This document shows, one piece after another, positions 31,523-39,528 of a DNA stretch of 39,581 nucleotides. How positions within the stretch are numbered: position 1 is the first letter of the stretch; every line of letters begins with the position of its first letter. The notes under the pieces are model-generated. The model was not told the DNA's origin. It saw only the letters and a list, made by a program, of their open reading frames with translations, and did not search any database. Origin of the DNA: Myxococcales bacterium (GTDB taxonomy: Bacteria; Myxococcota_A; Polyangia; Polyangiales; Polyangiaceae); NCBI GenBank assembly GCA_947473045.1, contig CANJCO010000047.1, forward strand, positions 1 through 39,581, read 5' to 3'. The translations under genes and the position numbers were made by a program.

Positions 31523-32494
31523 TCAAGGTGCGGAGGACGCGACCGTCGGGGTTGCCGCGGTTGCCGACGCGGCGTCGCCGGCGACGATCGCCGCACGACG
31601 CTCAGGCCGCGTGAACGGGCGCTCCCAGGGGCGCAGGTACAGGATGAGCGCGGCGAACATCACCATGCCGAAGCTGAAGAGCCCGTGGATGAGCACGATC
31701 CCCGCGTGCAGGCCGAATCCGCCGACGAGAAGGAACGGCCAAAAGCGTTTCGGCATGAAGAGCGCCGCGCTCAGCAGGTACTCCAGAGCGATGACGCCCC
31801 ACGTGAGCATGGCGACGAACGCGCCGTTCTTGAGCGACCACGAGACGACGGGCGAGAGCCAGTGCGGGGCGCCGAACGTCGGGTGAAGCAGCCAGTAGTA
31901 GAGCACCGTCCCGTCCTTCCACTCTTCGACGCCGAGCTTGCCGACGGCGGCGTGGAAATAGACGACCGCGACTTGAAGCTGAATGAGCAAGCGCGCTGTG
32001 ACGGCGACGAGCTTCGCGGCGTCGGAGCCCAACGAGTCGCTTCGCGTGGGCGCCGGCTGCCAGTGCCACTTGCGAGGGTCGGTGAGCGCGATGGGAATCA
32101 TCAGCAGCGCGAGGTTGGCGGTGAGCTGATCGCCGCCTTCGATGAGCGTCGCGTTGTCGCTGATGCTGAGCGCAATCCACCAATGCGGGATGGCTGTCCA
32201 TCGCGGGCGAAAACCGGTCGCGACGACGAGCAAGATACCGATCGCCAGCCATCGCGCGAAGCCCATGTGGTCCTGCGCCTGGCAGAACAGGCCCATGCGT
32301 TGGGCGCCCAGCACGCACGACGGGTGCACGCCGGATCCCCCCGCTATGGGATGAAACAGCGCGGCCAGCGGCGTCGACAGCAGCGTCATGGCCGACGACA
32401 GGGCGAGGATCGAGCGCGCAGTGCCGTAGATGTTCGTCCACGGTGACGCGTTTTGAATGGTGCGCTGGGCGCGCCTGCCGAGAGCTACAAGCAT
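31523..32494 (-). CDS. sdpB: SdpB-family (HTTM-like) maturation membrane protein
   Basis: A 323-residue polytopic membrane protein, very near the length of B. subtilis SdpB, which with SdpA is needed to convert pro-SdpC to the SDP toxin. Typical features: the start SPWTNIYGTARSILALSSAM, about six hydrophobic segments such as HMGFARWLAIGILLVVATG, LLIQLQVAVVYFHAAVGKLG and FLLVGGFGLHAGIVLIHGLF, and conserved YWLLHPTFGAP. The family is related to HTTM/vitamin-K-dependent carboxylase-like proteins; SdpB chemistry is not settled. Two Cys (CVLGAQRMGLFC) lie in an extracytoplasmic-looking loop. Its ATG overlaps the end of sdpA by 10 bp, and it ends the operon. Confidence 0.85.
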   Translation of the reverse strand: MLVALGRRAQRTIQNASPWTNIYGTARSILALSSAMTLLSTPLAALFHPIAGGSGVHPSCVLGAQRMGLFCQAQDHMGFARWLAIGILLVVATGFRPRWTAIPHWWIALSISDNATLIEGGDQLTANLALLMIPIALTDPRKWHWQPAPTRSDSLGSDAAKLVAVTARLLIQLQVAVVYFHAAVGKLGVEEWKDGTVLYYWLLHPTFGAPHWLSPVVSWSLKNGAFVAMLTWGVIALEYLLSAALFMPKRFWPFLLVGGFGLHAGIVLIHGLFSFGMVMFAALILYLRPWERPFTRPERRAAIVAGDAASATAATPTVASSAP

Positions 32495-33066
32495 GATACC
32501 GACACCCTAACTACGCGCGAAGGCATGGTGACGTGTTTGACGGCCCGCGCCCAGGCCCAGGGAACAGGCTTCTGCAGAACGATCCCAACCGATCCACACA
32601 GGGTGGGCAGCGGGCTCGTGTTTTCAATCGGGATCTCCCCGGTCGCGTCGCGGAGGCACTCAACCGGCTCGCGATCACAATCTTGATAGGAGGCCACCGG
32701 AATCGACGGGGCGAGATTGCCGAATTCGACGCCCTGCGCCCGACTGGCTCGGTTCCAGCCGAAAAAATGGGAGGGGTCGGCGTTGGGGGCTTGCGAGACC
32801 GATCGCCACTGGCCGCCGTCGTTGGGCTGGAAGAAGAACGCGACCTCCTCGCGCGGATCGCGGGTGAAGAACTTCCACCCCTGCGGCATCCACAGAATGG
32901 CATTTACCTGTTTGGCAAACGGAAGCTCGAGCGCAGTCGTGCCCATACCACTGGACCCTGCGTAGGCACACAGCACCATGGCTCCCGAAAAGAGGGCCAC
33001 CTGGAGCAGCCCGAGCGCGCGGAGGCGTTTGTCGGCAGTGGCCCTGTTTTCGTTGGAGTCGGTCAT
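32485..33066 (-). CDS. sdpA: SdpA-family antimicrobial peptide system protein
   Basis: A 193-residue protein from the ATG at 33066: a short charged N-terminus, one membrane anchor (about residues 17-37, LGLLQVALFSGAMVLCAYAG), then the SdpA signature PQGWKFFTRDPREEVAFFFQ (61-80), followed by SHFFGWNRASRAQGVEFGNL. Several cysteines occur in the C-terminal part (CDREPVEC and a later Cys). In B. subtilis, SdpA is required with SdpB for production of active SDP. Here it lies 29 bp after sdpC and overlaps sdpB by 10 bp. The longer frame upstream to 33258 runs into sdpC and is not used. Confidence 0.86.
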   Translation of the reverse strand: MTDSNENRATADKRLRALGLLQVALFSGAMVLCAYAGSSGMGTTALELPFAKQVNAILWMPQGWKFFTRDPREEVAFFFQPNDGGQWRSVSQAPNADPSHFFGWNRASRAQGVEFGNLAPSIPVASYQDCDREPVECLRDATGEIPIENTSPLPTLCGSVGIVLQKPVPWAWARAVKHVTMPSRVVRVSVSCL

Positions 33067-33095
33067 GATGAGCTCTCGCGGGTGGACTGCCTGAG

Positions 33096-33866
33096 TTACT
33101 TGAGGATGCTCGGGTTGAGGCGACCCGCGACGCTGAGCACGAACTGATCGTTCTGCAGGCCACCATCGGAGCCTCCGGCCTTGCCGAAGAATGCAAACAC
33201 GACGGCGACCGCGACCGCGACGATTTCGACCGCCACGGCGACGTCGAGGTACTTCCACCAGCCGCCGGCCGGATTGATTTGCCCGGTCGCCTTCTTCGAC
33301 GAAACCGCGGCCATCGAAGCCGCCTCATCCATCGCCTTCGCCACCGAAGCGAGGTTGCCGCTCTGCATCGCCGTGGCGAAGCGCGTGAAGAAGGTTGAGT
33401 CGATGGCGGCGATGGCGGCGATCGCGGCCGTCTGAGCGCTCGCGACCTGTTCAGCCGTCGGCCGTACCTTCGTCTCGGCGTAGCTCGCGGTATTCGTCGC
33501 GGAGACGGTCGTGGCGACTTCGCTCATCGTCGAAGCGGCTTCGGTGAAACCCTTGGCTGCGAAGCTGCTCGACGCTGTCTTGAGGCTGGAGACGATCTGC
33601 TCTTTCGTGACGCCCGGCATCGTCCCGGTGCGAACGAGCTCGGGATAAATCGCAGTGGCGGCGGGCCCGGTGCCGAAGATGAGGCCGGCGAACAGCGTCT
33701 GCCCGTCCCACTTGCCCGGTGCCGGCAGCGGGGCGAGCGCGGCGGACGCCGACTGGCTGTCGTCGCTGCTGGCGACGTCGCTGCCGTCAGCGACGACGCA
33801 GCCGGTGAGGGTGGAGGTGTAGGCGGCGAGAACGATGGCGCTGATGGTGCTGTAGAAGGTACGCAT
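33096..33866 (-). CDS. sdpC: SdpC-family toxin precursor (antimicrobial peptide), predicted lipoprotein
   Basis: 256 residues. After the signal comes a lipobox (TLTGC, Cys23). The family signature WDGQTLFAGLIFGTG (53-67) corresponds well to B. subtilis SdpC (FSGEDYFRGLLFGQG). A long helical Ala/Ser/Thr-rich middle follows, then the C-terminal hydrophobic toxin-like segment after GGWWKYLDVAVAVEI, about residues 206-228, and a tail ending SILK (QNDQFVLSVAGRL). The mature region would be cut from the C-terminal part by analogy with SDP. Cys23 is the only cysteine, so the disulfide of Bacillus SDP cannot form. The ribosome site AGGAG lies 8 bp before the ATG. A sigma54-type promoter precedes it. 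Confidence 0.88.
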   Translation of the reverse strand: MRTFYSTISAIVLAAYTSTLTGCVVADGSDVASSDDSQSASAALAPLPAPGKWDGQTLFAGLIFGTGPAATAIYPELVRTGTMPGVTKEQIVSSLKTASSSFAAKGFTEAASTMSEVATTVSATNTASYAETKVRPTAEQVASAQTAAIAAIAAIDSTFFTRFATAMQSGNLASVAKAMDEAASMAAVSSKKATGQINPAGGWWKYLDVAVAVEIVAVAVAVVFAFFGKAGGSDGGLQNDQFVLSVAGRLNPSILK

Positions 33867-33945
33867 GGTCGGACTCCTGAGGTGGCGGCAGTGGGTTTGG
33901 CGGGGCGCACCACGCTGGTGGCCGCTCGCTCGTACTGACGACCTT

Positions 33946-33961
33946 TGCGAGGCGCGTGCCA
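33946..33961 (-). promoter_or_regulatory. Sigma54-type -24/-12 promoter of the sdpCAB operon
   Basis: On the minus strand the sequence is TGGCACGCGCCTCGCA. The consensus is TGGCACG-R-N3-TTGCW. The invariant GG (-24) and GC (-12) have the correct 10-base gap, and 14 of 16 positions agree; mismatches are C for R and C for the first or second T of TTGC. Transcription would start about 12 bases downstream (near 33935), leaving a leader of about 69 bases before the sdpC ATG at 33866. The gene next upstream encodes a sigma54 activator. Confidence 0.75.
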
Positions 33962-34031
33962 CGGTCGCGTTTGCGCGAATACGGCCCGATTTGCCGCGTT
34001 TTTCGCCTTTGCGAGCGTGGGGGCTCCGGGC

Positions 34032-34090
34032 TGTTGCACCTGTTGCACCTGTTGCACCTGTTGCGGGTGCAACGCCGTGGGTGTTGCAGG
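34032..34090. repeat. TGTTGCACC tandem array with inverted half-site (enhancer candidate)
   Basis: Three perfect 9-bp units TGTTGCACC (34032-34058) are followed by a fourth TGTTGC joined to its reverse complement (GTTGC-N4-GCAAC, 34060-34073) and a fifth TGTTGCAGG (34082-34090). The array lies about 71-129 bp upstream of the sigma54 -24 element, in the gap between the activator gene and sdpC, the normal place for binding sites of enhancer-binding proteins. The spacing of 9 bp puts units close to one helical turn apart. Confidence 0.65.
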
Positions 34091-34131
34091 TGGAGGCGCT
34101 TCGCGCGGCGCTGCGTGGCAGCGACGGCCCG

Positions 34132-35697
34132 CTATGAGCGAAAGTCGTCGGGACCGACGCCGTAGCGCTTCATCCAACGTTGAATCTGCATGCGCGCCTT
34201 GCCCATCGCGCGCGCGACCTCGCTGACGTTGCCGCGGTGCGCACGCAGCTGGGCCACCAGCTCGTCGCGAAGGGGATCGACCGCGCTCGGGTCGATGGGG
34301 CGCGAGGGCGGCTCGCTCGGCGACGACAGCGGCGCTGCGTCGACGACCGAGGCCGGGAGGTGGTGCGCGTCGATGACGCCGCCTTCGGCGAGCACGATCG
34401 CGAGACTGATGCACTGCTCGAGCTCGCGCACGTTGAGGGGCCACCGATGCCGCAGCAGCGCGCGGCCCGCGCCGGGCGTGAAGCACGCGCCATCGTGACC
34501 CGGGGAGCGCTGGCGCCGCAGCAGGTCGGCGATGAGAACGCCGAGGTCTTCGCGGCGCTCGACCAGCGGGGGCAGGTGATGGACGAAGCCCGCGAGGCGC
34601 GCGTAAAGGTCGCTTCGGAACCCGCCCGTCGCTTGCAACGCCACGACGTCGCAGTGGGTCGCAGACACCACGCGGATGTCGACCTCGACGCTTCGGCTGC
34701 TCCCGACGGGCGTGACCTCGCGCTCTTGAAGCACGCGCAGCAACGCAGGCTGAGAGGCGAGCGGCATGTCGCCGATTTCGTCGAGAAACAGAGTGCCGAG
34801 GTGCGCCGATCGGACGAAGCCGACCTCGTCGCGCACGGCCCCCGAGAACGCGCCCCGCATGTGTCCGAAGAGCTGCCCCTCGACGAGCGCGGCGGGCAGG
34901 GCGCCGCAGTTGACCGGCACGAGCGCGCCGCTCCGCCCGGCGAGCGCGTGAATGGCTTGCGCGAGCACCTCCTTGCCGGTGCCTGTTTCACCGAGCAGCG
35001 TCACCGGTACGGCCGATGGCGCGATGCGCGCGAGGGCGGCCAGGTCCTTCGCGTAGCCGGGCAGCAGCGTGAACATGCCGCGCGGAGCCTTCGCGTGCTC
35101 GCTGTCGACGTCGGCGGGCGTCTGCCACGGAGTGGGCACCTGGGCGCGGAACACGAACAGGGTGTGCCCGAGCTCGAGGATGTCGCCGTCTTCGAGGCGC
35201 CGCTCGCGAATGACCTCTCCGTTGACCAGCGAGCCGTTCTTGGACCCGTCATCGCGCAGCACGTAACCTGAGCCGCTGCGCTCGATGCGCGCGTGTCGCG
35301 ACGACATGTGCCGATCGGGCACGCGCACCTCGAGCTGTCGACCGGTCGCGTTTCGGCTGCGTCGCGCAGAGCGCTCGCGGCCTCGCCCGATGGTGACTTC
35401 GTCGACGTCCGACAGGCAGAAGCGCGCGCCGCCGCCGCTCAGCCGCGCGCACTCGAGCACCAAAAACAGCTGCGCGCGGTGCTCCTCCCGACCTTCGAGC
35501 TTCTGCATCACGTTGGCAACGGCGCCGGTGAGCGTCGGATCGGTCGGCGCGGCGAGGTCGGCAGGAAGCACGGGGCCCGCGTGCGCGATCGCCCGGCGGG
35601 GATCCTCGCCAGCGCGCGTAGCGCCCGGCCGCTCGCTCGAGCTGCCGCTCATCGGATGCCGCGCGCGGGGCCGCAGGTGGTGAGGGAGCTGGCGCAC
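34132..35697 (-). CDS. FHA-AAA+-Fis sigma54-dependent activator (enhancer-binding protein)
   Basis: 521 residues from the first ATG; an internal ATG (35652, MSGSSSERPG) is an equally good start. Domains: a leader of about 70 residues, an FHA domain (about 80-185) with VTIGRGRE (Arg105), SSRHAR (132-137) and DDGSKNGSLVNG (Asn154); an AAA+ module with Walker A GETGTGKE (236-243), the sigma54-contact loop GAFSGA (282-287, usually GAFTGA), Walker B LFLDEIGD; and a C-terminal Fis-type helix-turn-helix (DELVAQLRAHRGNVSEVARA, IQRWMKRYGV). FHA-linked activators in Myxococcus read phosphothreonine. It lies directly upstream of the sdp operon and is the probable local activator. Confidence 0.94.
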   Translation of the reverse strand: MRQLPHHLRPRARHPMSGSSSERPGATRAGEDPRRAIAHAGPVLPADLAAPTDPTLTGAVANVMQKLEGREEHRAQLFLVLECARLSGGGARFCLSDVDEVTIGRGRERSARRSRNATGRQLEVRVPDRHMSSRHARIERSGSGYVLRDDGSKNGSLVNGEVIRERRLEDGDILELGHTLFVFRAQVPTPWQTPADVDSEHAKAPRGMFTLLPGYAKDLAALARIAPSAVPVTLLGETGTGKEVLAQAIHALAGRSGALVPVNCGALPAALVEGQLFGHMRGAFSGAVRDEVGFVRSAHLGTLFLDEIGDMPLASQPALLRVLQEREVTPVGSSRSVEVDIRVVSATHCDVVALQATGGFRSDLYARLAGFVHHLPPLVERREDLGVLIADLLRRQRSPGHDGACFTPGAGRALLRHRWPLNVRELEQCISLAIVLAEGGVIDAHHLPASVVDAAPLSSPSEPPSRPIDPSAVDPLRDELVAQLRAHRGNVSEVARAMGKARMQIQRWMKRYGVGPDDFRS

Positions 35698-39240: not shown

Positions 39241-39528
39241 CACAGCGCCCGTCACTACCACCGATGCGCGCGCGGCGCGGCGCTCGCTCGAAATGGCACC
39301 GTGACTCCGCGAAAGTCGCGCACGGAGCCGCCGTGACGGCCCACCTCGGCCTCAGTCGACGACGTGCTCGCGGGCCGAATCGGCAACGCGTCGGCAACGC
39401 GTCGCCGCGGTCGCCGCGAATTGGCCCGAGGACGGCCCCGCGCTGGCCCGGCCACCCTCCCAACTCGCGATCTGCGTGAATTCAGCCACATCGCCCATGG
39501 CACGCGCCCTGCTCAGTCTCCGAGCGCC

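What the first reader, a model, noticed from the sequence alone, without database searches (positions are those of the whole stretch)
33946..33961. Near-consensus sigma54 promoter ahead of sdpC
TGGCACGCGCCTCGCA on the minus strand keeps GG and GC with correct spacing and matches 14 of 16 consensus positions. It is 80 bp upstream of the sdpC ATG and faces it, and the neighbouring regulator is a sigma54 activator.
Basis: seen in the sequence. Interest (0 to 1): 0.72.

Follow-up and report, generated by a model that had tools for sequence, protein, structure and literature searches.

The report
Sigma54 promoter driving an SDP-toxin operon
A myxobacterial relative of the Bacillus "cannibalism toxin" operon sits behind what looks like a genuine sigma54 promoter plus a DNA repeat array that its neighbouring activator most likely binds, and the same array-plus-promoter unit recurs in front of unrelated exported-protein genes in related bacteria.

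Summary
The element is real. TGGCACGCGCCTCGCA (33961-33946, minus strand) keeps GG and GC at the right spacing and matches 11 of the 12 specified bases of TGGCACG-N4-TTGCW. It lies in the 265-bp gap between an FHA-domain sigma54 activator (EBP) gene and sdpC-sdpA-sdpB; chance of so good a sense-strand match there is about 0.001.

At 34033-34073, 79-112 bp upstream of the -24 element, lie three tandem GGTGCAAC half-sites (9-bp period) and one inverted half-site. The tandem occurs nowhere else in this genome. In 184 genomes of the order it occurs at 21 places; 15 of them have a 10-11/12 sigma54 site on the same strand 63-152 bp downstream, about 100-fold over background. Eight of the 15, window included, have a homologous EBP gene nearby with a near-identical recognition helix. 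In one genus the EBP tail, array and promoter were copied in front of a peptidase gene, and homology ends near the predicted +1.

Other sdpCAB loci lack both element and adjacent EBP, so this control is lineage-specific. It is a new member of a known kind (FHA-EBP/sigma54 promoters), with an enhancer I found no description of. No transcript data were available.

The parts
33946..33961 (-). sigma54 -24/-12 element TGGCACGCGCCTCGCA (GG at 33960-33959, GC at 33948-33947)
   Evidence: 11/12 of the consensus; same-strand downstream position relative to the GGTGCAAC tandem conserved in 14 other places
33935..33935 (-). predicted transcription start (+1), 12 nt downstream of the -12 C
   Evidence: inference from sigma54 geometry; no transcript data. 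In the duplicated promoter copies of genus g15 homology ends close to the equivalent position
34033..34058 (-). three tandem GGTGCAAC half-sites, 9-bp period (34058-34051, 34049-34042, 34040-34033): proposed enhancer (UAS) of the adjacent EBP
   Evidence: only copy in the genome with up to 1 mismatch; recurs upstream of sigma54 sites elsewhere
34060..34073 (-). inverted half-site GTTGCACC (34073-34066) within GTTGCACCCGCAAC; a further lone TGCAAC at 34088-34083
33874..33878 (-). AGGAG ribosome-binding site of sdpC
   Evidence: read from sequence
33096..33866 (-). sdpC: SdpC-family toxin precursor, 256 aa, N-terminal signal with a lipobox-like LTGC and a C-terminal hydrophobic stretch
   Evidence: TIGR04032 E 2.6e-13, 50 bits, below the curated cut-off of 99; conserved D.TFF.RF core with other SdpC-like proteins
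32485..33066 (-). sdpA
   Evidence: PF17418 E 6.6e-43, TIGR04034 over cut-off
31523..32494 (-). sdpB (overlaps the sdpA end by 10 bp)
   Evidence: TIGR04033 E 2.2e-74, over cut-off
34132..35652 (-). sigma54 activator (EBP): FHA domain, AAA+ with GAFSGA, C-terminal Fis-type HTH
   Evidence: PF00498, PF00158, AAA_lid_14; GAFSGA and HTH GKARMQIQRWMKRYG

Best explanation
33961-33946 is the -24/-12 element of a sigma54 (RpoN) promoter that transcribes sdpC-sdpA-sdpB from about 33935. The FHA-domain EBP encoded immediately upstream binds, through its C-terminal Fis-type helix, the GGTGCAAC tandem array at 34033-34073, contacts the closed sigma54 holoenzyme by looping, and opens the promoter by ATP hydrolysis. 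The EBP is probably switched by a Ser/Thr kinase through its FHA domain. Shown by computation: the element, the array, their order and spacing, their joint recurrence across genera, their link to homologous EBPs, and the presence of RpoN. Inferred: that the EBP binds the array, that the start is at about 33935, and that a kinase controls it.
For: 11/12 match with GG/GC and spacing, p about 0.001 for this gap. One RpoN gene in the genome. The adjacent co-directional EBP has FHA, AAA+ and HTH and GAFSGA, listed in PMC4641369 as a variant that keeps activity. The tandem GGTGCAAC array is 79-112 bp upstream of the -24 element; EBP repeats typically lie 80-150 bp upstream (PMC7910581). Unbiased test: all 21 places with GGTGCAACNGGTGCAAC in 184 genomes of the order; 15 have a sigma54 site of 10/12 or better on the same strand 63-152 bp downstream, 6.25 per kb against a background of 0.067 per kb, and one hit in all other offset bins within 1 kb on the same strand. 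The composite pattern matches 5 of 379 genomes of the phylum, its reversed control none. EBP genes beside the array carry GKARMQ(I/V)QRW. In genus g15, 189-232 bp of EBP tail, array and promoter are about 80-84% identical between two unlinked loci with different downstream genes, and homology stops near +1.
Against: No transcript or binding data. Twelve other sdpCAB loci lack the element. The 15 positive places are not independent: about 5-7 locus types, with 10 of 15 in one genus. The window EBP is not the closest relative of the other array-linked EBPs in a tree. Several equally close EBPs have no such array. The Ser/Thr kinase genes found next to other modules were not seen beside this EBP.
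Confidence: 0.88

Rival explanations
1. The sigma54-like element is a chance match, and sdpCAB is transcribed from a housekeeping or ECF-type promoter, or by read-through from the EBP gene.
For: The strict pattern is not enriched in the genome as a whole (8 against 7 for the control). Three sdpC loci of genus g5 have a different conserved upstream block, CGATCCATGT-N5-GAGTCGTCTCATCCC, which looks unlike sigma54. EBP and sdpC are co-directional, so read-through is possible.
Against: No sigma70-like promoter was found in 33000-34400. The array-to-element geometry recurs at 14 other places, with none in the reversed control of the composite pattern.
Confidence: 0.06
2. The promoter is sigma54-dependent, but the GGTGCAAC array is not the EBP's enhancer. 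It is a hairpin at the end of the EBP message, a site for another factor, or a minisatellite.
For: GTTGCACC and GGTGCAAC can pair as an 8-bp stem. Tandem GGTGCAAC also occurs inside Gly-Ala-Thr coding repeats that have nothing to do with promoters (L121, L083).
Against: The RNA fold is no better than shuffled sequence (z -0.99) and no T-run follows. The array keeps its side, strand and distance relative to the sigma54 site, also where no EBP gene precedes it (L068, L072, L076, L116). In the duplicated copies the array travels with the promoter.
Confidence: 0.1
3. The EBP at this locus acts elsewhere and a different EBP uses this promoter.
For: The genome encodes other EBPs (a second full-length match in G000). 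At about half of the array-promoter places in other genomes no EBP gene was found in the stretch examined, so the activator can act from a distance.
Against: In this genome the tandem occurs only beside this EBP. Its HTH is nearly identical to those of the array-linked EBPs of other genera.
Confidence: 0.08

Closest known systems
FHA-domain EBPs and the sigma54 regulon of Myxococcus xanthus (Jelsbak, Givskov and Kaiser 2005, cited in PMC12288465; paper itself not read)
   Same: An activator with an FHA domain, an AAA+ domain and an HTH; sigma54-dependent targets; myxobacteria.
   Different: Different lineage, and the target is an sdp toxin operon. I found no description of the GGTGCAAC enhancer.
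Nla28 and sigma54 promoters of M. xanthus natural-product genes (PMC7910581)
   Same: TGGCACG-N4-TTGC(T/A) elements with upstream tandem 8-bp half-sites of an EBP; control of antimicrobial production.
   Different: The Nla28 half-site is CT(C/G)CG(C/G)AG and most of those promoters lie inside genes; here the half-site is GGTGCAAC and the promoter is intergenic.
sdpABC of Bacillus subtilis
   Same: SdpA, SdpB and SdpC families in one operon.
   Different: Gene order is C-A-B. No SdpI (PF13630) was found anywhere in the genome. In Bacillus the operon answers to Spo0A/AbrB (from general knowledge), not to sigma54.

Membership tests
sigma54-dependent promoter | GG at -24 and GC at -12 with 10 bp between, near-consensus flanks | tested here: met
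   11/12 specified positions
sigma54-dependent promoter | RpoN present in the organism | tested here: met
   one gene over the TIGR02395 cut-off
sigma54-dependent promoter | activator site roughly 80-150 bp upstream | tested here: met
   GGTGCAAC array 79-112 bp upstream of the -24 element, recurrent geometry; binding not tested
sigma54-dependent promoter | RpoN- and EBP-dependent transcription from +1 | not testable with these tools
   needs transcript mapping and mutants
FHA-type bacterial enhancer-binding protein | FHA, sigma54-interacting AAA+ and HTH domains | tested here: met
   PF00498, PF00158, PF25601, HTH
FHA-type bacterial enhancer-binding protein | GAFTGA loop or a tolerated variant | tested here: met
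   GAFSGA; listed as tolerated in PMC4641369
SDP (sdpABC) toxin system | SdpA and SdpB over the curated cut-offs | tested here: met
SDP (sdpABC) toxin system | SdpC over the curated cut-off | tested here: not met
   TIGR04032 50 bits against a cut-off of 99; a divergent relative by position and by its C-terminal hydrophobic region
SDP (sdpABC) toxin system | SdpI immunity protein | tested here: not met
   no PF13630 in this genome or in 8 other sdp-bearing genomes

The most novel reading that the evidence does not exclude
The GGTGCAAC array plus sigma54 element, often with the EBP gene or only its tail, is a transferable promoter cassette of Polyangia that captures genes for exported proteins (lipoproteins, an S37 peptidase, an SDP toxin operon), placing them under one FHA/kinase-linked signal.
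Probability: 0.4. Interest if true: 0.62.

Novelty: new member of a known kind. Interest (0 to 1): 0.5.

Why it matters
It gives a concrete, testable regulator, binding site and start point for an SDP-type toxin operon outside Bacillota, where its control is not described in the papers I found. It also assigns a candidate DNA motif to a group of FHA-domain activators, most of which have unknown targets, so their regulons in Polyangia can be read from sequence. The duplicated promoter in one genus shows how such control can be moved to a new gene.

Tried and rejected
Conservation upstream of other sdpC genes: 12 loci (11 in Polyangia, 1 in Pyxidicoccus) scanned; no comparable element in the expected position. 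The 8-10/12 hits seen there (for example L035 at +57, L033 at -91) are not conserved sigma54 sites; the aligned GG-AT...TGCA in three g5 species sits in a generally conserved leader. NtrC site: the dyad resembles TGCAC-N7-GTGCA, but the spacing here is 9, so rejected. Terminator or hairpin reading of the array: no energy signal and no T-run. EBP homologs in general: most close homologs (L040-L058) have neither array nor strong sigma54 site next to them, so the association is with the array, not with the whole EBP group. Literature search for GGTGCAAC with sigma54 gave only unrelated papers.

Full report
Observation. The minus-strand sequence 33961-33946 is TGGCACGCGCCTCGCA. Against TGGCACGNNNNTTGCW it has one mismatch in 12 specified positions. 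GG and GC are kept with correct spacing. With GG/GC fixed, a match of 11/12 or better falls on one strand of a 265-bp stretch of this composition with p about 0.001. Genome-wide the strict pattern is no commoner than its reversed control (8 against 7), so the site must be judged by its context.

Context. All relevant genes lie on the minus strand: EBP 35652-34132, gap of 265 bp, sdpC 33866-33096, sdpA 33066-32485, sdpB 32494-31523. SdpA and SdpB pass curated cut-offs; SdpC is a divergent member, 50 bits against a cut-off of 99, sharing the D.TFF.RF core with other SdpC-like proteins. The EBP has FHA, sigma54-activator AAA+ and HTH domains. Its GAFSGA loop is among the variants regarded as functional in PMC4641369. 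The genome has one rpoN. No sigma70-like promoter was found at 33000-34400.

The missing piece. Between the EBP stop and the sigma54 element lie three GGTGCAAC half-sites with a 9-bp period, at 79, 88 and 97 bp upstream of the element, and an inverted half-site at 112 bp. EBP repeat sites are typically 80-150 bp upstream of the -12/-24 regions (PMC7910581). Allowing one mismatch, the tandem occurs nowhere else in the genome.

Test. A DNA search with the gap hit similar arrays in other genomes, one of them 1.8 kb from an EBP homolog. I then searched 184 genomes of the order with GGTGCAACNGGTGCAAC alone, without reference to sigma54. It occurs at 21 distinct places. In 15 there is a sigma54 site of 10/12 or better on the same strand, 63-152 bp downstream of the start of the last tandem. 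That is 6.25 per kb in that zone against 0.067 per kb overall, with one hit in all other same-strand zones within 1 kb. At least three of the six places without a site (L118, L121, L083) read as Gly-Ala-Thr-type repeats in an open frame; only in L083 is that frame long. The composite pattern of tandem, gap and sigma54 element matches 5 of 379 genomes of the phylum, and its reversed control none. The 15 places fall into about five to seven locus types, ten of them in one genus (g15), so binomial figures overstate significance; the enrichment is nevertheless clear across the window's genus, g15, g20, g21 and g41.

Link to the activator. Eight of the 15 places, the window included, have a homologous EBP gene in the stretch examined: in the window and in six g15 genomes it precedes the array, in G020 it follows the target gene. 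These EBPs share the C-terminal helix GKARMQ(I/V)QRW(M/L)KRY. A tree does not place the window EBP as sister of the others, so the shared motif reflects either an old shared site or conservation of the helix. Ser/Thr kinase genes lie near the module in G056, G020 and G059, which fits an FHA-read phospho-signal; none was seen beside the window EBP.

A natural experiment. In g15 a second locus carries the array and sigma54 site in front of a gene for an S37 peptidase. About 190-230 bp, from the tail of the EBP gene through the array to about 11 bp past the sigma54 element, is 80-84% identical to the EBP-linked locus; homology then stops (shorter, 155 bp, in G415). The copied block is the promoter unit.

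What it is not. The element is not a conserved feature of sdp operons: 12 other sdp loci lack it and lack an adjacent EBP. Three g5 loci have a different conserved leader. No SdpI-type immunity gene was found in nine sdp-bearing genomes, so how the producer protects itself is open.

Verdict. Sigma54 promoter: very likely (about 0.95). Use by the adjacent FHA-EBP through the GGTGCAAC array: likely (about 0.85). Kinase input: plausible (about 0.6). The kind is known from M. xanthus (FHA-EBPs, cited in PMC12288465; Nla28 promoters, PMC7910581). The enhancer sequence and the toxin cargo are, as far as the held papers show, not described.

Noticed in passing
39498-39513 (+): A second 11/12 sigma54-like site, TGGCACGCGCCCTGCT, 68 bp before the end of the contig; the gene it would serve is not in the window.
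   Followed up: no
L072, L073, L074, L070 (genus g15): EBP gene tail plus array plus sigma54 promoter duplicated in front of an S37 peptidase gene; homology to the EBP-linked copy ends near the predicted +1.
   Followed up: yes
L031, L032, L033 upstream of sdpC: A conserved block CGATCCATGT-N5-GAGTCGTCTCATCCC upstream of sdpC in three g5 species, possibly another promoter type.
   Followed up: partly
window genome and 8 other sdp-bearing genomes: No SdpI (PF13630) immunity family member found although sdpA is present, so immunity must be of another kind.
   Followed up: partly
sdpC 33096-33866 and targets in L067, L071, L072, L076, L068: Products directly downstream of array-sigma54 promoters mostly begin with signal peptides, often lipobox-like (LTGC, IGGC, LVAC, LMAC).
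   Followed up: partly
L121, L083: Tandem GGTGCAAC can also arise as Gly-Ala-Thr coding repeats, a source of false hits for this motif.
   Followed up: yes
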